Positions 1 through 11,856 of a DNA stretch of 26,228 nucleotides are shown one piece after another. Under the pieces are notes generated by a model. That model was not told the DNA's origin and searched no databases. It saw only the letters and a list, made by a program, of their open reading frames with translations. The stretch comes from Lachnospiraceae bacterium (GTDB taxonomy: Bacteria; Bacillota_A; Clostridia; Lachnospirales; Lachnospiraceae), in contig JAILPG010000300.1 of NCBI GenBank assembly GCA_024699595.1, forward strand, positions 1 to 26,228, given 5' to 3'. The position numbers were made by a program, and so were the translations under genes. Each line of letters begins with the position of its first letter. Positions within the stretch are counted from its first letter, which is position 1.

Positions 1-1982
1 GTGATATTGTCAAGTGCAGAGGTAGCCTCATCAAACATTAGTATCTTAGGCTTACCGACAATGGCTCTTGCGATCATGAGGCGCTGCCTCTGCCCGCCGG
101 AAATGCCTCCCTGCCCCTCTGACAGCATCGTATTCATTCCCATCGGCATATTCCTTATATCATCGGCAAACCCTGCCGTCTCAGCTGCTTCCCATGCATC
201 ATTGACTGTAAGCCAAGGTGCTGAGATCACGATATTTGAATACACATCACCGCTTAGTAACTTCCCATCCTGCGTAACAGAGCCGATACGTCTTCTTAGA
301 GACTGCGGATCGAGGCTGTTCAGATCACGGCCGTCATAGTAGACAGCTCCCTTCTGTGGCTTTTCAAATCCTAACAGTATGCGCATGAGAGTTGATTTGC
401 CGCAGCCTGTTTTTCCTACGATAGCAACATACTGCCCCGGACGGATCTTAAGGCTTACGTTATCAAGGATCAGGGGCATGTCTTTACGGTAACGGAAGGA
501 TACATTATTAAGCTCTACCCCTCCGCGCAGGGATGTGACCATGATCTTGTCCTTACCGGTCTCGGGAACGGTATTGAGGATCGGCTTTGCCATTTCAAGA
601 GAAGGCTTTATCTGCGCTATACCGGTCGCGACCCTTGAAAGCGACAGGAATGCTCCGTCTACCATTCCGTATGCTGTAGTGAAGGCATAATACTCTGCCA
701 CGGAGACGCCGCTTTTTATCGCGCCATAATATAACACCATGGCTCCGATCATCGTTATCGCCATGATGATCACACCGCTAACCCTTAACATCATGGGCGG
801 ATTATAGGTAAAAGCAGCACATTTTGCATATATATCTGCCCATTTTGCAAAGGCTCTCTTCTCAGCGCCCGAAAGGCGTATCTTCTGGATGCCCGTGATA
901 TATGAGTGGCAGATGCTGCTCTCCTTAACGGAGATGCCCATCTGGCTTCTCAGGACCCGGATCTGCAGCATGACGGTCAAAAGCGATACGAGGACTGTAA
1001 GGAGTGTAATGGTAAGAGACGGTATTACCAGGGCCGGCGCGTACTTGAATATCTGTGTGATATATACAAGCGAGAATATGCTCGACAGTCCGGTTGAGAG
1101 AGCCATGCTCACCATCTTGTCGGAAAGCGTGCCGAGGCTTCCCACTCTGCCTGCGAGCTCACCTGCACTGAAGCGTTTGAAAAAAGAAGGCGGCAGTGAC
1201 AGTATTCTCATCATCGAAGCTGCTTCCACGGAAATATTAAGCTTTGTGCTGATCCTTGCGGATGCAAATCCCTGCAGGATGCGAAACATAAGCAGCGAGA
1301 GGGATATGGATATCATAACTAGCCCCATCCCTGCAAGCATCCGGATGCTTCCTGATCTGAGCACATCCGAAAAGAGTATCGCGTTTAGCTTTGGAAGGAG
1401 CATCCCCACACAGGTTGCGGCTGTCATTGCCAGGATAAGCATGAAGATATCTATGGGTGAGATCTGCTCCGTCATATACCTGATCAGATCAGAGGTGTTC
1501 ATCGCCTTATTTGGGAAAGGTCTGTAAAAAGCTATCGCCTCATTTTTGATCTCATCTTCATTATGTCCGTTAACCGTCACATATTTTCCCTTATTTCTGT
1601 CATAGTAACGGTATCTGCCCGGACCCAAGGGGATCAGAGCCACCACACTGTCATCATCCTTTTTGGTGCCAAGCATTGCTCCCGCCGCATCTTTGTACCA
1701 GCCTTTGTCAAGCCTTACGTTTCGCCTCATAAAGCCTTGCGGATGTAAAAGATATTCAAGCACCTCGTTCATATCGGTAAGACTGTCCGGAACCTCGGAA
1801 GGCTTTAACTTATAGTATTTAAGGATCTCAGCGATAGCATCGGTGCTTAACTGCCTGTTGTGATTCAGGGCTTCGCTCATATGATCGCCCGTCACGGCGT
1901 TTGCGATGTTCTGCAGGGATTCCGCAATAGATTCTGTATCTGTTTTTTTTCTCTTGTTTATCTGTTCGTCAAACCAGCCCAT
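1..1982 (-). CDS. NHLM-type (peptide-leader export) ABC transporter permease/ATPase, second subunit; 3' end cut by window
   Basis: Translation of the minus strand from the ATG at 1982 (starts MGWFDEQINKRKK) stays open to the window edge, giving 660 codons with the end missing. About 165 N-terminal residues have no peptidase motif. A multi-helix ABC exporter membrane domain follows from about residue 175. The nucleotide-binding domain has Walker A GKTGCGKST near residue 521, signature SGGQRQR near 626 and Walker B ILMFDEATSALD near 647; the H-loop lies outside the window. An AGGTGG ribosome site sits 10 nt before the start, and only 27 nt separate it from the stop of the upstream C39 transporter, so the two are co-transcribed. 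Layout and partner match the second ABC family (TIGR03797-like) that accompanies C39-ABC proteins in NHLP peptide export. It probably forms a heterodimer or a paired exporter with its neighbour (inference). Confidence 0.85.
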   Translation of the reverse strand, partial: MGWFDEQINKRKKTDTESIAESLQNIANAVTGDHMSEALNHNRQLSTDAIAEILKYYKLKPSEVPDSLTDMNEVLEYLLHPQGFMRRNVRLDKGWYKDAAGAMLGTKKDDDSVVALIPLGPGRYRYYDRNKGKYVTVNGHNEDEIKNEAIAFYRPFPNKAMNTSDLIRYMTEQISPIDIFMLILAMTAATCVGMLLPKLNAILFSDVLRSGSIRMLAGMGLVMISISLSLLMFRILQGFASARISTKLNISVEAASMMRILSLPPSFFKRFSAGELAGRVGSLGTLSDKMVSMALSTGLSSIFSLVYITQIFKYAPALVIPSLTITLLTVLVSLLTVMLQIRVLRSQMGISVKESSICHSYITGIQKIRLSGAEKRAFAKWADIYAKCAAFTYNPPMMLRVSGVIIMAITMIGAMVLYYGAIKSGVSVAEYYAFTTAYGMVDGAFLSLSRVATGIAQIKPSLEMAKPILNTVPETGKDKIMVTSLRGGVELNNVSFRYRKDMPLILDNVSLKIRPGQYVAIVGKTGCGKSTLMRILLGFEKPQKGAVYYDGRDLNSLDPQSLRRRIGSVTQDGKLLSGDVYSNIVISAPWLTVNDAWEAAETAGFADDIRNMPMGMNTMLSEGQGGISGGQRQRLMIARAIVGKPKILMFDEATSALDNI

Positions 1983-2009: not shown

Positions 2010-4187
2010 TCATTCATTTGCAACCAGACGGGCATACATCCCGTTTTGCGCCATCAGTTCGTCATGTGTTCCGCGTTCCGCTACTTTTCCGTTATCAAGC
2101 ACGATGATCTCATCACAGTCCCTCACGGAGGAAAGCCTGTGCGCGATCACCACGCAGGAGATGCCCCGGTTCTTGATGGACTCCACCACGCCTGATTCGG
2201 TAGCGGCATCGAGCGCACTGGTAGCCTCATCAAGGATGATCATTGTGGGGTCCTGAGCAAGCACGCGGGCTATTTCAAGGCGCTGTCTCTGACCGCCCGA
2301 CAGATCCTTTCCGCCCTCCATGAGCCTGCAGTTGTAACCGCCGTCACGCAGCATGATATCCTCATGCAGCTTTGCGTCTCTTGCGGCAAGGATCATCTCA
2401 AAATCCTCTATAGTGTTGTCCCACATTTTTATATTATTGGCTATGGTATCTCCGAATATCGTTATATCCTGATCCACCACGGCAACTGAACCCGTAAAGA
2501 TGCTTCGGTCTATCTCGGAGATCGGGATGCCGTCAAAGAGTATCTCACCGCTCCAGGGCCTGTAAAGTCCGCTTATGAGCTTTGCAAGAGTTGATTTGCC
2601 GCAGCCGGTGCTTCCGACAAAGGCCACTCTCTGTCCCTTTTTAAGCTCCATGTTAAAATCTGTGATAAGAGGCGGTGCAAGCTTCGAATAACCGAAGGTC
2701 ACATGCCGCATTGACAGTGTGCCGTTTAGCTTTGCATATTCAACAGGCTCTTTTTTTTCCTCAAATACCGGATCATCCGGATACTTCATCACATCCTCGA
2801 CGCGTTCCATGTCGGTCCGCATCTCCTGTATGGTCTGACCGGCACTTACGAGCTGGTTTGCAGGCTGCATGAACGAATTCAGGAAGCCCTGAAATGCAAA
2901 TATCATACCTGCCGTGAAATGCCCCTCCATAGTAAGCCATACTCCTAAGATAAGGATCAGGCTGTTAAGGACCGTACTTACTGCAGAAGGTATCATGCCG
3001 AGATACTGATTGAGCTTCAGATATCTGATATTCTGGGTGTTGACGGAGGCCTGGTATCCGGCCCATTTTTCATAGCATCCGTTCTCGGCGGCGCTTGCCT
3101 TGATCGTCTCTATCATGTCAAATGTGTTCATTGTGGCGCCGGTGAGTCTGCCCCGGTCGCGCATGGAGACGCGTGTGATATTGATCCTCTTTGCGCTTAT
3201 AAGCCGTGACAGCAGTATGTTGATGATAAGGCTTCCCATCCCTATCATGGTAAGCAGCAGAGAGTATCTGACCATTACCACAAGATAGAAGACCATCATG
3301 CAGGTGTTTAGAAAAAGAGGCGCAAGAGTCTCAACCATCCTAGAAGCGATCGTTGCATTGCTGTCTTTTCTTGACTGGATGTCTCCGGACATCCTCTGGT
3401 TGTAGAATATCATGGGGAGTTTCAGAAGCTTCCACATAAACGACGTATTTCCGAATGCAGCTAACTTGCCGTTTATGCGTAGCATATAGACCGCCTCTAT
3501 TAAGGCGGCGGTCAGCCGGATGATGATCAGTATGGTCATTCCGGTAAAAAAAGGTTTGAGCCAGGCAGGATCTGCTCCTGTTAACAGCTGATCTATGAAT
3601 ACTCTTGAGAATCCGGAAGATATGATCTTTGTTAATGCGCCTGCCATGGTGGTAAGCGTCACGAAGATGACAGCAGGTCCGGCACCTGATAACCTCTCGC
3701 GCACATAGCCTGCCATCGATCTGGGCTTTCCGCCGGGCTCAAAGTCCTCTCCGGGCTTTAACAGGATCGCGATGCCGGTGAATGCCTCGTCGAAGCGCTC
3801 AAAGGTTATGCTGTAATTTCCCTTTGCCGGGTCGTTTATATAGACCCTGTCTCCCTTGAAACCGCACAGGACTACGAAATGATTGAATTCCCAGTGGATG
3901 ATGCACGGGAAAAAACCGTCCTCTTTAAGATCTTCGGGTTCGAGGCGGTATCCGTCCGCCTCCATTTTGTAGTTTCTTGCAGCCTTTAAGATGTTTCCCG
4001 CACAGGAACCGTCTCTGCTGACTCCGCAGTCTGTACGCACCTGCTCGAGAGGTATCCATTTGTTATAGTATGCCATGATCATGGCAAGGCAGGCCGCTCC
4101 GCACTCCAGAGCTTCCATCTGCATGATCACGGGCACTTTTGCAACACCTTTTACGGGATTTTTTATCTTTTCATCTGTCTGCAGCAT
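2010..4187 (-). CDS. C39-peptidase ABC exporter (NHLM/PCAT type) that cleaves double-glycine leaders
   Basis: This 725-aa protein has the three parts of a peptidase-containing ABC exporter. The N-terminal C39 peptidase (about 1-130) shows the triad Cys29 (in LECGAAC), His103 (in FNHFVVL) and Asp119 (in INDPA). A transmembrane domain of about six helices spans roughly 160-440. The ATPase has Walker A GSTGCGKST near 524, signature LSGGQRQR near 627 and Walker B MIILDEATSALD near 650. Length fits the family (TIGR03796-like, about 710 aa). Such proteins cut a leader after Gly-Gly and pump out the remainder. The ATG at 4187 follows AAGGA closely. The CAP protein just upstream on the same strand carries a matching GG leader and is the likely substrate. 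No HlyD-type adaptor is visible; in a Gram-positive it may not be needed, or it may lie beyond the window. Confidence 0.92.
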   Translation of the reverse strand: MLQTDEKIKNPVKGVAKVPVIMQMEALECGAACLAMIMAYYNKWIPLEQVRTDCGVSRDGSCAGNILKAARNYKMEADGYRLEPEDLKEDGFFPCIIHWEFNHFVVLCGFKGDRVYINDPAKGNYSITFERFDEAFTGIAILLKPGEDFEPGGKPRSMAGYVRERLSGAGPAVIFVTLTTMAGALTKIISSGFSRVFIDQLLTGADPAWLKPFFTGMTILIIIRLTAALIEAVYMLRINGKLAAFGNTSFMWKLLKLPMIFYNQRMSGDIQSRKDSNATIASRMVETLAPLFLNTCMMVFYLVVMVRYSLLLTMIGMGSLIINILLSRLISAKRINITRVSMRDRGRLTGATMNTFDMIETIKASAAENGCYEKWAGYQASVNTQNIRYLKLNQYLGMIPSAVSTVLNSLILILGVWLTMEGHFTAGMIFAFQGFLNSFMQPANQLVSAGQTIQEMRTDMERVEDVMKYPDDPVFEEKKEPVEYAKLNGTLSMRHVTFGYSKLAPPLITDFNMELKKGQRVAFVGSTGCGKSTLAKLISGLYRPWSGEILFDGIPISEIDRSIFTGSVAVVDQDITIFGDTIANNIKMWDNTIEDFEMILAARDAKLHEDIMLRDGGYNCRLMEGGKDLSGGQRQRLEIARVLAQDPTMIILDEATSALDAATESGVVESIKNRGISCVVIAHRLSSVRDCDEIIVLDNGKVAERGTHDELMAQNGMYARLVANE

Positions 4188-4222
4188 ATATCCTTATGGT
4201 TGTTTCAAACCTGATAAATAAC

Positions 4223-4258
4223 ATCAAAGGAAACGCAGATATGAGCGTTTCCTTTGAT
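4223..4258 (-). promoter_or_regulatory. 14-bp perfect intercistronic hairpin between CAP cargo gene and its exporter
   Basis: ATCAAAGGAAACGC (4223-4236) and GCGTTTCCTTTGAT (4245-4258) are perfect inverted copies around an 8-nt loop. On the minus strand the hairpin lies after the CAP stop and before the exporter start. No clean U-run follows (GTTATTTATC), so it is more likely a partial terminator or 3' stabiliser, which would make more cargo than exporter mRNA, than a full stop. Confidence 0.7.
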
Positions 4259-4331
4259 AAGTGTAGCATACCCGTATTTTTGCGTCAAAACAGGAGAGAG
4301 TGGACAGATGGAGATTACAGGCTTAATGATC

Positions 4332-4826
4332 TTAGTTATCTGTATTTCCTCCGTATCCGGATTCCTGCGACCAGTAGTGGAGGCCACCGTTATCTTCATA
4401 TACAGCTATATCGCCTTTCACAAAATCATCGTACGTAATATTTTCACGGTGTGCCGGCGAATCCATCCAGTCATCGATGACCTGCTGTTCATTATCAAAG
4501 CCAAATTGAAGATTCTCTCCTCCCTGAATGTCGGAATTGACCTGGTTCCATGCCGCTCCGCCCGGCCTTTCATGATTCCAGGTTTCCTCAGCCGCTTCTT
4601 GTCTTGCTTGGCCAACATCTTCCAGATTGAGATCCCAGTCAAGCTCTGAAAGCCCTGCCTGATTACGCTCTTCATTGATGATATTACCCGCGTCCATGGC
4701 AAGCGCTCTCAATTCACTGTCTTGTCCGTCACTGACACCGCCGTATACAGTATCAAGATCTTCCTGACTTATCTTTTTGTTACTGAGTCTGTCTGTATCT
4801 GCATCGTTCTGATTCTGTCTGCTCAT
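4332..4826 (-). CDS. CAP/SCP-domain protein with N-terminal double-glycine export leader
   Basis: The protein is 164 aa. Residues 1-30 are charged, have no hydrophobic signal peptide, and end in ISQEDLDTVYGG, the classic double-glycine leader pattern (I -12, L -7, V -4, GG -2/-1). The remaining 134 residues are a CAP (cysteine-rich secretory/PR-1) domain. Visible CAP landmarks are IINEERNQAGLSELDWD, then WNHERPGGAAWNQV, GENLQFGF, WMDSPAHRENI, and a closing DIAVY...HYWSQ strand. The ATG at 4826 is chosen because AGGAGG lies 4 nt before it; a longer reading frame to 4865 would translate through that ribosome site. The gene directly precedes the C39 exporter. CAP domains usually leave by Sec, so a GG leader is odd and points to export by the adjacent exporter. 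What the released domain does (wall binding, ligand binding or other) cannot be read from the sequence. Confidence 0.85.
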   Translation of the reverse strand: MSRQNQNDADTDRLSNKKISQEDLDTVYGGVSDGQDSELRALAMDAGNIINEERNQAGLSELDWDLNLEDVGQARQEAAEETWNHERPGGAAWNQVNSDIQGGENLQFGFDNEQQVIDDWMDSPAHRENITYDDFVKGDIAVYEDNGGLHYWSQESGYGGNTDN

Positions 4827-4954
4827 GATTCCTCCTGAGGGGATGTGGATATATATTGAAATCATTTATGATACCTGTGCATGGCTCCGAGGCTGGTTGC
4901 TCCCGCCATCATATTTATATACGAAGCGGTAGCTGCCCTGGCAGAAAAAAGTGG

Positions 4955-6001
4955 TCACTGCAGCGCTATCTCCGTAGAGCCGATATCTGAGAAGGTGTTG
5001 TAGTTGTCATGTATCGTAAGTGTGAGCGGTGAGGTCTTGTTTACAAGCTTTACGGTGTAGCAGGCCTCGACCGAAGCGCCGTTTGAGATCTTCTGATCCT
5101 TATTGTAGAGCTCATCGGGAGGCTCTGACAGTGCTGCAAAGGTTTCGCAGCTCTGGCCTTCCTGGGTTACAAGCGGGACATATACCTCGGACATCGACAG
5201 TTCATCGGCGGTCCTGTTTTCAAAGGTAAAGTAGATCACGGCAGCAGGATTGCCGTCAATGTCATCCGTAAGCTGGACCTTGGTACAGGTCAGCGCAAAC
5301 TGCTCGTTGTTCACATTTACCGAACCGCTGTTGCCCTCTGAGGAGCTTTCCTGCGAGGTATTCTTGCCCATGGCGTCTGCTATGTCGAAGTCCTTGTTGT
5401 TAAGCTTCAGTACAAAGTGGATGAGTACGCACAAAAGGCCAATGAATACGATCCCTTCTATGGTCAGGATGATCGCGCTCATGATCTTAAAACGCTTATC
5501 CTTCTGTTTCCGTTCATAGGCTCTTGAATAGTGGGCTACATCCTCCTCATTGAGATCATTTATGAGCTTTTTGTCTCTGCTCTTATCATCAGAGGTCTTT
5601 TTTCTTTTTCCTGTTTCTTCGGCGTCTCTCTTTGACTTGTCCTCGTTGAACTTCTTTGCGGGGTTGGTCATGTCAGAGGTCTTTACATGCTTATTCCGGG
5701 ATGAGCTGCCTGCTCCCGTTTTGTAAGGATCCGTCCCGTAGCCTGCACCTGCTCCTGTTTTGTAAGGGCCTGCCTGATAGCCTGCACCGGTGTTGTATGC
5801 ATCCATCCTGCCTGATCCCTGAGGAGAGGGTGAGCTGTTCATATTATTGACAGCAGCTGGGTCGTTATGATCAAGGACACTGTCACCTACTGAAAAATCG
5901 ATGGATGAGCCCTGTTTCTTGTTTCCCTTCTGCTGTTTTTTTCTTGCCTTTATTTCTTCCGGCGTAAGCTTACGCCTTACGATCTTTTTGTTTTCTGCCA
6001 T
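4955..6001 (-). CDS. Membrane-anchored protein with extracellular DUF5067-like domain
   Basis: A 348-aa protein in three parts. The cytoplasmic N-terminus (1-170) is lysine-rich and low in complexity, with repeated PYKTGAG-like segments around residues 68-98 and many K/R/D/E between 105 and 170. One transmembrane helix lies at about 174-199. The extracellular remainder (about 215-348) resembles DUF5067, with beta-strands reading AAVIYFTFENRT and ASVEACYTVKLVN. DUF5067 domains are Ig-like modules of Firmicutes surface proteins with no assigned function. The ribosome site is weak (GGAAC). The start lies 20 nt after the stop of the 140-aa gene, so the two probably share an mRNA, and the CAP gene follows 128 nt downstream. 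A role as surface partner of the exported CAP protein is possible but is inference from position only. Confidence 0.75.
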   Translation of the reverse strand: MAENKKIVRRKLTPEEIKARKKQQKGNKKQGSSIDFSVGDSVLDHNDPAAVNNMNSSPSPQGSGRMDAYNTGAGYQAGPYKTGAGAGYGTDPYKTGAGSSSRNKHVKTSDMTNPAKKFNEDKSKRDAEETGKRKKTSDDKSRDKKLINDLNEEDVAHYSRAYERKQKDKRFKIMSAIILTIEGIVFIGLLCVLIHFVLKLNNKDFDIADAMGKNTSQESSSEGNSGSVNVNNEQFALTCTKVQLTDDIDGNPAAVIYFTFENRTADELSMSEVYVPLVTQEGQSCETFAALSEPPDELYNKDQKISNGASVEACYTVKLVNKTSPLTLTIHDNYNTFSDIGSTEIALQ

Positions 6002-6021
6002 GTTTGTTCCGTTCTTTTCAT

Positions 6022-6444
6022 TCAGGATTTCGAGGGCTTGGTAAAACAGCTTTTTTTGCCCTCATAGTCTGTGCCGGTCTCCGACCTGAAATGCTCGAAA
6101 TACAGCTCGGGATCCTTCATTACATCATACATCGTGAAGTATGCTTTAAGGATCATCTCGGAGGGGTTGTACTTAAGTCCGAACTTGCCCTCGTCGATCG
6201 CGGCCTTGAAGCGGTCTGTCTGCCACACGAGGATGTCGACAACCGTCATTCCCTTTACGTTTAGGCTGCAGAGGAAATCCTCATGCAGACGGTAATAATC
6301 GATCTCCTCATAGAGCTCATGTTCACTGAGCACCCTTGACATCAGCTCCTCCGCAAAGGAAGGATCATCCGTAAAATCAAGGGATTTCTTTTTTATCCAT
6401 TCATACAGTTTTCTCTGTGCGTCGGTCAATGTTTCGGGTTTCAT
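6022..6444 (-). CDS. Hypothetical 140-aa soluble protein
   Basis: I do not recognise this family. The product is 140 aa, acidic and predicted mostly helical, with many aromatic residues (for example EEIDYYRLHEDF and AYFTMYDVMKD) and no signal peptide or membrane segment. It opens with LTDAQRKLYEWIKKKSLDF and ends in a basic tail, GKKSCFTKPSKS. It precedes the DUF5067-like gene by 20 nt on the same strand and so belongs to that transcription unit. The ribosome site before the ATG at 6444 is poor. The 35-bp tandem repeat that begins 24 bp upstream occupies the place where its promoter or operator would be. Confidence 0.65.
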   Translation of the reverse strand: MKPETLTDAQRKLYEWIKKKSLDFTDDPSFAEELMSRVLSEHELYEEIDYYRLHEDFLCSLNVKGMTVVDILVWQTDRFKAAIDEGKFGLKYNPSEMILKAYFTMYDVMKDPELYFEHFRSETGTDYEGKKSCFTKPSKS

Positions 6445-6467
6445 ATGTCTGTACTGCTTAGTTTGTG

Positions 6468-6582
6468 CGGATTTCGTTAATCCGTTTGCTAGCTGCGTAT
6501 AGCGGATTCCACTAATCCGTTTGCTAGTTGCGCATAGCGGATTTCGTTAATCCGTTTACAGGATGTGTATAGCGGATTAAGA
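6468..6582. repeat. 35-bp tandem repeat, 3.3 copies, each with CGGATT/AATCCG inverted arms
   Basis: Units start at 6468, 6503, 6538 and (partial) 6573, exactly 35 bp apart. Each complete unit opens with CGGATT-N5-AATCCG, a 6-bp inverted repeat. The 5-nt centre varies (TCGTT, CCACT, TCGTT) while the arms are unchanged. The rest of the unit is close to TTTGCTAGCTGCGTATAG. It lies directly upstream of the 140-aa minus-strand gene. Possible roles are an operator array, a hairpin series or a minisatellite. Confidence 0.85.
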
Positions 6583-6596
6583 AAGCAGGTGAGCTG

Positions 6597-6800
6597 CTAA
6601 TGATTAATTCGCATAACTATGATCATCGTATCAATGACAGTATAGCACATATCGTATAAATCTTCTCTTTCCATTTTTGGCTGTATTTTTCTATTGAGAT
6701 AATATTCAAATTCTTGTATTATGATGCTGACTGTGAAAAGAATAATTCCGATTCCAGCGCATTTTATGCCTAATTTAATACAAATCTTTGATTTAGCCAT
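6597..6800 (-). CDS. Small single-pass membrane protein, function unknown
   Basis: 67 aa starting MAKSKICIKLGIK, with one strongly hydrophobic helix at about residues 12-32 (GIGIILFTVSIIIQEF), then a charged segment (NRKIQPKMEREDLYD) and a shorter hydrophobic tail. The ATG at 6800 has AAGAAGGA about 7 nt upstream, a good ribosome site; a TTG one codon earlier is less likely. It matches no family I know. Its 3' end borders the 35-bp repeats and its 5' side faces the 74-bp array. Its first bases, ATGGCTAA, are the same 8-mer that forms the arm of that array, which may be chance or may mean the array arose from this start region. Confidence 0.5.
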   Translation of the reverse strand: MAKSKICIKLGIKCAGIGIILFTVSIIIQEFEYYLNRKIQPKMEREDLYDMCYTVIDTMIIVMRINH

Positions 6801-9335: not shown

Positions 9336-9369
9336 TGTTTTTGTGTAATTGGAGGAGGATTATAATCAA

Positions 9370-11856
9370 ATGGGAAAAGCAGCTAAAAAACAGCGTCAGA
9401 GCAAAGATAAACTGACATTTTTCTCAAAGATGAGCACAAAGATCACACTGCTTATCAGTGCGATCGTATTTCTTACAGTTGTCGTACTGGTATTTCTTGC
9501 TACCGGACGGGCAACGTCTACGATGGAAAAGACATATCTGAACTACGCACAGAATCTTGCGGAAGAGGCTGCGATCGGAGTTGACTTTGCAACCGATTTT
9601 GGTGAGGAGTCCTATGGCGGATATACCAAGAACCTTGCCGAGGAAGCTGCGGTTTCCATTAATTTTTCCAGAGAATTCGGTGAGACAGTCTACAAAGCCT
9701 ATGCACAGAACCTTGCCGAGGAAGCTGCAAAGGCCGTGGATCTTGCAGACGTCGAGATAGCCGCTGACGGAGAAGATGCTGATGTGGCAGCAAATGCAGG
9801 TGCTTTAGACGGAGTTCTCGGAAATGTGAAGATCATCGGAGTAGAGGGATCTTATGCATACATGGTATCCCCTGACGGAACAATGTTATGGCATCCCAAT
9901 GCAGAAAAGATCGGCAATCCTGTAGAAAATGCTGCAGTTAAGGGAATAGTTGCAGATCTGCAGGCAGGCAAGACCGTTGAGAACGGATCCGTACTGTATG
10001 AATATAAGGAAGCATTAAAGCTTGCCGGATATGCGTTTACCAAGGCAGGAGACATCCTCATAGTAACAGCTGACTATGACCAGTTCATGAAGATCGATTA
10101 TGATACCCTTCTTGGAAACATCACAATAGACGGAGTCGAGGGTTCATATGCATACATGGTATCCCCTGACGGAACGATGTTATGGCATCCCAATGCAGAG
10201 AAGATCGGACAGCCTGTAGAAAATGCCGCGGTTAAGGGAATCGTTGCAGACCTTCAGGCAGGAAAAACAGTTGAAGACGGCTTTGTAGTATATGACTACA
10301 AGGGTGCCTTTAAGATGGCCGGTTATTCATTTACCGACACCGGAAACATCGTGCTTGTTACTGCCGATTACGATAAGCTCATAAGGATCGACTATGACAG
10401 CCTGATCGGTGCGATCGAGATATCAGGTGTAGCAGGATCATACGCATACATGGTATCTCCTGACGGAACGATGCTGTATCACAACAATCCCGAGAAGATC
10501 GGACAGCCTGTTGAGAACGCTGCAGTTAAGGGAATCGTAGCAGATCTTCAGGCAGGAAAGACCGTACCTAACGGATCGGTCGCTTACGAGTACAAGGGAT
10601 CCTATAAGGTTGCCGGATATGCATTTACCAAGGCCGGAAACATCATAATAGTAACAGCTGACAGAGACGTGATGATGGCAGAAGTAACTCATATGAGAAA
10701 TCTGCTCATCCTTGCCGGTATCATCTGCCTTGTAGCATCTCTGATCCTTGTAGCAGTATTTACGATGCTGATGCTTAAGGCTCTCGAACAGCTCGTTCCT
10801 GTTATCAATAAGACAGCCAATTATGACTTTACTGAAGACAGTGCCTCACGCAGGCTTGAGAAGAGAAGCGACGAGGTTGGTCTTATCGCGAAGTCACTTT
10901 CACAGACCAGGAACAACCTAAGAGATATGGTTGAGATGATAGCCCGTGCCGGCACAAGTATTGATACCAACGTCGGTGTACTGCAGGCTACGATCAACAA
11001 GGTCGGCGGCATCTGTGAAGACAACTCGGCTACAACCGAAGAGCTTGCGGCAGGTATGGAAGAGACTGCAGCAACCACGACAACCATTGCCCAGAATGTT
11101 GAAAACGTTCAGGAGAATGCACGCGGTATCGACGATCTGGCTAACGAGGGAACAAAGCTTTCGAATGAAGTATACGAAAGAGCCAACGAGCTTGCAGCTA
11201 CGACCGAGAAGGCAAGCAGAAAGACGATGGAGATATACGAGGAAGTCAAAGTCAAGTCCGAAGATGCCATCAATGCTTCACATGCGGTTAACAAGATCAA
11301 TGAACTTGCAGACGCTATCATGGCTATCTCATCACAGACCGGTCTTCTTGCACTGAATGCTTCCATAGAGGCAGCAAGAGCTGGTGAAGCCGGACGTGGA
11401 TTTGCAGTAGTTGCTACCGAGATCGGTAATCTTGCAACCCAGACTTCGGAGGCAGTAAAGAATATCGGAAGCATCGTTGCCGAGGTTAACAGTGCGGTTG
11501 ATCAGATGTCAGAGTGCCTGACGCAGACAACCTCCTTCCTCGAGACCAACGTATTATCCGATTATCAGGAGTTTGGCAAGGTCAGCGTACAGTACAGAGA
11601 AGATGCGGATACCTTCGGCAACAGCATGGATAACATTAAGAGGAGCGTTGAGAGCCTGGCTGCCGATATCGAAAAGATCGTTAACGCCATCGGCGGTATC
11701 GATACGACCGTTTCAGAGACCTCTCACGGTGTTATTGACATAGCTGAAAAGACTACCGATATGGTCAGCGAGACCTCAGACAGCGCAAGCAAGGTTATCG
11801 AGTGTCAGGAGGCTGTAGCTGATCTTAATGACATCATCAACAAGTTCACTCTGTGA
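9370..11856 (+). CDS. Methyl-accepting chemotaxis protein with triplicated Cache sensor
   Basis: 828 aa. TM1 is at about 25-46. It is followed by three 26-aa helical repeats, each with (Y)xxNLAEEAA, whose copies start at 9544, 9622 and 9700. Then come three 98-aa Cache-type repeats (about 149-436) with near-identical cores [35 protein letters not shown] and [10 protein letters not shown], spaced exactly 294 bp. TM2 is at about 444-469, then HAMP, then the signalling domain with the conserved tip [20 protein letters not shown] near 655. No C-terminal CheR-tethering pentapeptide is seen. The ATG at 9370 follows GGAGGAGGA; an upstream TTG at 9349 would include that site. Such receptors sense small extracellular ligands and control CheA; Cache repeats often bind amino or organic acids, but the ligand here is unknown. 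metF follows with almost no gap. Confidence 0.93.

What the first reader, a model, noticed from the sequence alone, without database searches (positions are those of the whole stretch)
2010..4826. A whole CAP domain carried by a double-glycine leader next to its own C39/ABC exporter
The sequence shows a CAP domain preceded by ISQEDLDTVYGG and no Sec signal, directly before a C39 exporter with intact Cys29/His103/Asp119 and a second NHLM-type ABC subunit. GG leaders and NHLM transporters are known for small bacteriocin-like peptides, while CAP proteins normally use Sec. Inference: this is a dedicated export route for a 134-residue folded or foldable domain, a cargo class different from peptides.
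Basis: partly seen in the sequence, partly recalled or inferred. Interest (0 to 1): 0.75.

Follow-up and report, generated by a model that had tools for sequence, protein, structure and literature searches.

The report
CAP-domain protein with peptide-exporter leader
A bacterium, probably from an animal gut, appears to send a whole 134-residue CAP domain out through an exporter normally tied to small peptides, using a double-glycine leader instead of the usual secretion signal, and related exporters seem to carry other small wall-binding domains in the same way.

Summary
A 164-aa ORF (4826-4332, minus) has a 30-aa double-glycine leader (I-12, L-7, V-4, GG) and then a complete CAP domain (134 aa, 15.0 kDa). 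Downstream lie a C39-peptidase ABC exporter (TIGR03796, above cut-off) and a TIGR03797-type partner cut by the contig end. The 120 listed nearest CAP relatives all have a hydrophobic Sec, membrane or lipoprotein N-terminus instead. Best reading: the C39 domain cuts after GG and the pair threads the domain out without Sec (no experiment). The wider claim is partly supported. No second leader-CAP gene was found, and 0 of 43 exporters in 299 genomes has a CAP match within 50 kb. Protein-sized GG cargo has a published precedent (MAM of Faecalibacterium). New here: in related gut Clostridia the same exporter family accompanies GG leaders joined to LysM or CW_7 domains (7 genomes of a 250-genome sample, all 7 with the exporter, against 27 of 250 overall; 4 linked within about 6 kb). 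The CAP gene looks like one case of a leader-plus-wall-domain cargo class. A terminator-like hairpin separates CAP from the exporter, and the usual HlyD-stub gene is missing.

The parts
4332..4826 (-). GG-leader CAP protein, 164 aa
   Evidence: Pfam CAP E 1.6e-12; AlphaFold2 model on 74 sequences, ten-residue block means 86-97 over 41-70, 88-97 over 101-160, weaker 59-75 over 71-100; Foldseek best hits are CAP proteins 4d53, 4h0a, GAPR-1
4737..4826 (-). 30-aa double-glycine leader MSRQNQNDADTDRLSNKKISQEDLDTVYGG
   Evidence: profile score 20.5 against a null of 2517 GG sites; I-12, L-7, V-4 are the positions reported to dock in LahT and PCAT1; pLDDT below 50 over residues 1-33
4335..4736 (-). 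predicted mature CAP domain, 134 aa, 14.96 kDa, pI 4.05, no Cys
4831..4836 (-). AGGAGG ribosome-binding site, points to the ATG at 4826
   Evidence: sequence
4222..4259 (-). 15-pair terminator-like hairpin between CAP and ABC1 (attenuator or terminator)
   Evidence: 4 such sites found in 4000-6600, 2.4 expected; the 144-nt intergenic RNA folds with z -4.25, 0 of 200 shuffles as good
2010..4187 (-). ABC1: C39 peptidase-permease-ATPase, NHLM type
   Evidence: TIGR03796 898.7 bits; C39 domain 226 bits to LahT150, 6mpz
3747..4136 (-). C39 peptidase domain of ABC1 (residues 18-147)
   Evidence: Pfam PF03412 E 6.3e-35
3..1982 (-). ABC2: second NHLM permease-ATPase without peptidase, truncated by the contig end
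   Evidence: TIGR03797 602.7 bits over positions 10-621 of 686, below cut-off 709.4; 27 nt after ABC1

Best explanation
The CAP protein is a substrate of the neighbouring exporter. Its 30-aa leader docks by I-12, L-7 and V-4 in the groove of the ABC1 C39 domain, Cys29 cuts after Gly30, and the ABC1/ABC2 pair threads the unfolded 134-aa chain across the membrane, where it folds outside. It arose from an ordinary membrane-anchored or lipoprotein CAP of Lachnospiraceae that lost its Sec signal and gained a double-glycine leader just in front of the domain, either by fusion or by remodelling of the linker that was there. The exported domain most likely works at the producer's own wall or in its surroundings, as the LysM and CW_7 cargo of sister exporters suggests. 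Shown: sequence parts, homology, fold model, leader fit, neighbourhoods. Inferred: cleavage, export, pairing of ABC1 with ABC2, folding outside, origin of the leader, wall role.
For: The leader fits the C39 rules and the C39 domain is close to LahT150 (226 bits), which is reported to cleave diverse GG substrates. The domain is complete and the first helix of its fold begins at residue 37, just after GG30. 120 of 120 listed CAP relatives have hydrophobic N-termini; only the window lacks one. Near relatives of the exporter lie near other GG leader plus whole-domain genes: LysM 5, CW_7 4, acyl-carrier-like 1 among 71 chosen members, one of which is the window. GG-LysM or GG-CW_7 was read in 7 genomes of a 250-genome sample and all 7 hold ABC1, which is in 27 of the 250 (hypergeometric 8e-8; 5 of 5, 7e-6, without the two genomes from the exporter-selected set). 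By contrast 0 of the 26 other genomes with LysM-type matches (23 read without a GG leader, 3 not fetched) are among those 27 (tables). MAM is a published cargo of similar size.
Against: The gene is a singleton: 1 member sequence, 1 contig; the region 1-75 search found only itself among 3 candidates. No conserved linkage of CAP with the exporter. Hairpin and 144-nt gap make co-transcription doubtful. The HlyD-stub gene next to ABC1 in 111 of 120 relatives (114 counting three overlapping calls) is absent here, so the exporter may be incomplete, although the contig ends inside ABC2. In the Lachnospiraceae sample of 40 exporter loci the longest mature GG cargo is 66 aa. 20 of the 27 exporter genomes in the 250 gave no GG-LysM or GG-CW_7, and the co-occurrence test ignores kinship.
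Confidence: 0.72

Rival explanations
1. The exporter serves mainly other, smaller GG peptides encoded past the contig end; CAP is one of several passengers that has acquired the common leader.
For: In 63 of 120 relative loci GG cargo ORFs were found, often several per exporter and often downstream of ABC2 (155 ORFs at score 15 or more, median mature length 43). The window stops inside ABC2.
Against: At score 13 or more the only GG-leader ORF in the 26 kb is CAP, and it sits directly upstream of ABC1. Compatible with the main reading in all but the word 'dedicated'.
Confidence: 0.45
2. CAP acts inside the cell or is a dying gene: the leader is chance or a leftover and the protein is not exported.
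For: Singleton without a Sec signal; the hairpin separates it from the exporter.
Against: Leader score above all but one of 2517 null sites, strong ribosome-binding site, intact frame, residues H85, E104, H126 kept as in all 74 aligned sequences.
Confidence: 0.1
3. CAP is an accessory of the export system (protease, wall opener or chaperone for the true peptide cargo) taking over from the missing HlyD stub, in whose place it lies.
For: CAP lies where 111 (114 counting three overlapping calls) of 120 relatives have a short HlyD-stub gene; six of six such stubs tested match only about the first 42-58 positions of TIGR03794.
Against: It has a GG leader and no membrane anchor, and the stub profile found nothing in the window. 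A stub could lie past the contig end.
Confidence: 0.15
4. Leader and CAP were joined by mis-assembly of the metagenome contig.
For: One contig only; leader G+C 0.41 against CAP 0.48.
Against: In-frame join at the domain border with its own ribosome-binding site, followed by a colinear exporter; the leader core also shares two residues with the linker of some relatives.
Confidence: 0.04

Closest known systems
MAM (Microbial Anti-inflammatory Molecule) and its PCAT, Faecalibacterium duncaniae (PMC12184118; outline, abstract and passages seen)
   Same: GG leader of about 21 aa, about 113-aa mature protein, adjacent C39-ABC exporter, gut Clostridia; authors report MAM as the most abundant envelope protein; export inferred there too
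   Different: the authors report no known domain in MAM; here it is a recognised CAP domain with Sec-type relatives, and an NHLM pair ABC1/ABC2
NHLM (NHLP/Nif11) export system, Haft et al. 2010 (PMC2887384; passages seen)
   Same: TIGR03796 and TIGR03797-type exporter genes side by side
   Different: cargo is not an NHLP or Nif11 precursor by profile; no TIGR03794-like gene found in the window
LahT (Lachnospiraceae C6A11) and PCAT1 with CtA (PMC6363468, PMC6959990; passages seen)
   Same: C39 domain and the -4, -7, -12 docking positions
   Different: their substrates in those passages are peptides; PCAT1 cargo is disordered and estimated at about 9,000 cubic angstroms
YkwD-like Sec or lipoprotein CAP proteins, several named Lachnospiraceae (P0002-P0121)
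   Same: CAP domain, 41-61% identity in the local alignments listed
   Different: hydrophobic signal or anchor in 120 of 120 listed

Membership tests
NHLM peptidase exporter (TIGR03796) | score above the curated cut-off | tested here: met
   898.7 bits against 853.3
NHLM peptidase exporter (TIGR03796) | C39 catalytic Cys, His, Asp | tested here: met
   Cys29, His103, Asp119 align with 6mpz and 4ry2 in the CGAA, HFVV and DP.KG blocks
NHLM second subunit (TIGR03797) | score above the curated cut-off | tested here: inconclusive
   602.7 bits against 709.4, C-terminus cut by the contig end
NHLM export system | HlyD-like subunit TIGR03794 beside the exporter | tested here: inconclusive
   none in the window; contig ends inside ABC2; six relatives tested carry only an N-terminal stub below cut-off
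CAP/SCP family (PF00188) | profile match and fold | tested here: met
   48.8 bits against 21.1; Foldseek best hits CAP
YkwD subfamily (TIGR02909) | score above the curated cut-off | tested here: not met
   42.1 bits against 171
NHLP or Nif11 RiPP precursor (TIGR03793, TIGR03798) | leader profile match | tested here: not met
   no match for the CAP protein at E 1
C39 (PCAT) substrate | hydrophobic -12, -7, -4 and GG at -2, -1 | tested here: met
   I, L, V, GG (sequence); rule
C39 (PCAT) substrate | cleavage after GG and export | not testable with these tools
   needs a bench test

The most novel reading that the evidence does not exclude
NHLM-type C39 exporters of gut Clostridia form a Sec-independent route for stand-alone wall-binding domains: short GG leaders are set before CAP, LysM, CW_7 and perhaps zinc-ribbon and acyl-carrier-like domains, so that a cell exports a set of single-domain proteins that coat or probe peptidoglycan. 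The window's CAP gene is a recent recruit to this class.
Probability: 0.45. Interest if true: 0.72.

Novelty: new variant of a known kind. Interest (0 to 1): 0.52.

Why it matters
It shows a protein family that normally uses Sec moved to a peptide exporter by a change of its N-terminus, and it ties that to recurrent GG-LysM and GG-CW_7 genes beside the same exporter family. If true, exporters annotated as 'bacteriocin' systems in gut bacteria would also deliver wall-binding proteins, their cargo would be missed by Sec-signal predictors, and the size limit of C39-ABC transport (cargo larger than the PCAT1 cavity) becomes directly testable.

Tried and rejected
Tried: conserved CAP-exporter linkage. 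Rejected: one CAP ORF within the flanks of the 80 exporter loci kept (of 184 found), in L077 and of Sec type, and none in 40 more; in 299 genomes the only same-contig pair is about 55 kb apart (G251; read from the tables). Tried: other leader-CAP proteins by a region 1-75 search; only the query came back among 3 candidates, so the search was weak. Tried: a clean pasted-on leader. Not certain: the ungapped alignment runs on through the leader core, which shares D-8 and V-4 with the linker of some relatives, and some genome matches begin at query residues 6-14, so the leader may have grown out of that linker. Tried: first fold with 12 sequences, mean pLDDT 56, replaced by 74 sequences, mean 75. 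Tried: neighbours (DUF5067 protein 4955-6001, ORF 6022-6444); no match near other exporters. Tried: plasmids; exporter relatives at 38-43% in the 15 rows listed of 20, none of this group. Tried: phage and anti-phage families: for CAP a weak sporulation-protein family, for ABC1 two ATPase-type matches.

Papers: eight searches. Rows listed of papers found: 20 of 63; 25 of 27; 7 of 7; 2 of 2; 20 of 72; 8 of 8; 12 of 42; 20 of 134. No listed title or abstract start spoke of GG leaders on CAP, LysM or CW_7. The paper opened for joint 'double-glycine leader' and LysM (PMC5524665, passages) names the leader only in its reference list; PMC3482391 (passages) has C39 and LysM in other senses. Subscription journals are not held.

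Rows dropped before counts: of 106 CAP places, 50 were read (30 given as loci, 20 more with open frames up to 265 aa, not all of those); of 25 all 25. In one search five of 78 ORFs lacked a hydrophobic stretch: L101 borderline, L182 and one L123 piece cut by the locus end, the other L123 ORF and L125 without a visible N-terminus. Of 43 exporters, 40 were fetched (not fetched: the G001 copy, which is L001; G130:C52; G242:C106). The 80 and 40 loci may share genomes. The 71 members are the window and a selection of the rows, mostly with longer mature parts. Of 53 LysM-type places only those inside fetched loci were read for a leader (score above 12; the weakest counted scores 12.3). The 120 CAP relatives are the best listed of 5168, from a profile in which 11 of 12 rows have hydrophobic N-termini, which favours such relatives. 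A 316-aa GG ORF in L057 is probably not a gene.

Full report
What is there. The window is a complete 26,228-base contig (P0001 longest contig 26228); no genome is held for it. Its exporter is closest, 71%, to a Lachnospiraceae MAG. On the minus strand, in transcription order, lie an unknown 140-aa ORF, a DUF5067 protein (4955-6001), the CAP gene (4332-4826), ABC1 (2010-4187) and ABC2 (3-1982, cut by the contig end). AGGAGG stands four bases before the ATG of CAP. The protein has a 30-aa leader ending in ISQEDLDTVYGG and then a CAP domain (PF00188, E 1.6e-12). An AlphaFold2 model on 74 sequences (mean pLDDT 75, pTM 0.69) is confident over most of 41-160, weaker over 71-100 (block means 59-75) and under 50 for 1-33; its best solved-structure matches are CAP proteins: BB0689, SAV1118, GAPR-1. 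His85, Glu104 and His126 are invariant in the 74 sequences.

Is the leader more than chance? A 12-column profile from 36 GG leaders of related loci, window left out, gives the window 20.5 bits. Of 2517 GG sites deep inside long ORFs one scored more (25.7) and the next 12.3. The 36 were picked by a pattern, so this tests resemblance, not function. Independently, I-12, L-7 and V-4 are the positions reported to dock in the groove of LahT and PCAT1 (passages), and LahT tolerated Tyr at -3, which the window has.

A changed N-terminus. The 120 listed nearest CAP relatives all carry a hydrophobic Sec, membrane or lipoprotein N-terminus by a simple hydropathy rule; the window does not. Of 78 CAP ORFs read at 75 genome places 73 have such a stretch and none a GG leader. 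Strong similarity to the closest relatives begins at about residue 32, directly after GG. Two caveats. The profile search that gave the 120 favours relatives with hydrophobic N-termini. And the alignment runs ungapped into the leader core, where D-8 and V-4 agree with the linker of some relatives, so the leader may be a remodelled linker and not a pasted-on piece.

The exporter. ABC1 is NHLM_micro_ABC1 above cut-off; its C39 domain is close to LahT150 (226 bits) and Cys29, His103, Asp119 are kept. ABC2 is of NHLM_micro_ABC2 type, truncated and below cut-off. In 111 of 120 relative loci (114 counting three overlapping calls) a short membrane gene lies directly before ABC1; of the rest two have it elsewhere, three are cut by contig ends and one (L151) lacks it. 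Six of six tested match only about the first 42-58 positions of the NHLM HlyD family, below cut-off. The window has none; CAP lies in its place. Between CAP and ABC1 there are 144 nt with a 15-pair hairpin, so CAP may end its own transcript, or the exporter may be expressed less than its cargo.

Is it conserved? No. Of the 80 exporter loci kept none has another CAP beside ABC1. In 299 genomes of one family 43 exporters occur in 35 genomes and 106 CAP matches in 94; no pair lies within 50 kb on one contig. The protein is a singleton in the database.

A wider class. Around the 120 relative exporters I counted 155 GG-leader ORFs in 63 loci; median mature length 43, three above 100 (316, doubtful; 184; 132), so the window's 134 is near the top. 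In the random Lachnospiraceae part the longest is 66. Many have Nif11-type leaders (14 of 71 by Pfam, 19 by NCBIfam). But some are a GG leader plus a known domain: LysM 5, CW_7 repeats 4, one acyl-carrier-like domain (by eye the attachment serine is Gly), and many Cys-rich ribbon-like ones. In 250 genomes of the family of L051, GG-CW_7 or GG-LysM proteins were read in seven. All seven hold ABC1 against 27 of 250 overall: hypergeometric 8e-8, or 7e-6 without the two genomes that come from the exporter-selected set; kinship is not corrected. None of the 26 other genomes with LysM-type matches, 23 read without a GG leader and 3 not fetched, is among the 27 (tables). Against: 20 of the 27 exporter genomes gave no such protein. 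In four of the seven the cargo read lies about 1.0-6.2 kb from ABC1; in three it is on other contigs. CW_7 repeats are said to recognise peptidoglycan (title in the listing, PMC5705596).

Mechanism. Inferred: the leader docks, C39 cuts after Gly30, the chain is threaded unfolded and folds outside. The dry volume of the domain, about 18,100 cubic angstroms, is above the about 15,000 given for the PCAT1 cavity, so transport as a folded, enclosed domain is unlikely. Function outside is unknown; a role at the wall is inferred from the LysM and CW_7 cargo and the YkwD-like relatives.

Known or new. Protein-sized GG cargo has been proposed before: MAM of Faecalibacterium, 135 aa, leader of about 21, adjacent PCAT, most abundant envelope protein (outline, abstract and passages; the export step there is also inferred). 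NHLM exporters and LahT are described (passages). No listing of my eight paper searches showed GG leaders joined to CAP, LysM or CW_7 (partly capped). Hence: new variant of a known kind.

Noticed in passing
L051 2582-2920, 5090-5290, 5341-5619; L053 14666-15073; L078 8611-9021; L079 8403-8765; L037 14424-14696, 17726-18031, 21253-21471: GG-leader proteins that consist of LysM or double CW_7 domains near NHLM exporters; GG-LysM or GG-CW_7 read in seven genomes of a 250-genome sample.
   Followed up: partly
L064 15146-15445: GG leader joined to an acyl-carrier-like domain (PP-binding E 7.4e-6); by eye the phosphopantetheine serine is a glycine.
   Followed up: no
L010 7100-9578; also L016 14641-15908, L017 14495-14917, L019 9092-10833: Families of similar GG-leader Cys-rich, ribbon-like proteins (six or more in L010) beside the exporter.
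   Followed up: no
L198 near 340, plus strand: GG leader followed by a 126-residue part whose first 95 residues match no Pfam family, beside GG-LysM and GG-CW_7 genes.
   Followed up: no
relatives L001-L080 and L131-L170, upstream of ABC1: The NHLM HlyD subunit looks reduced to a membrane stub of roughly 70-200 aa (starts not curated) in these loci; six of six tested match only its N-terminal end.
   Followed up: partly
window 9349-11856 (+): Methyl-accepting chemotaxis protein in which a sensor segment is repeated at 98-residue spacing (motif at residues 167, 265, 363).
   Followed up: no
window 4955-6001 (-): DUF5067 protein (by eye a basic part and one membrane span) directly upstream of CAP; no match near other exporters.
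   Followed up: partly
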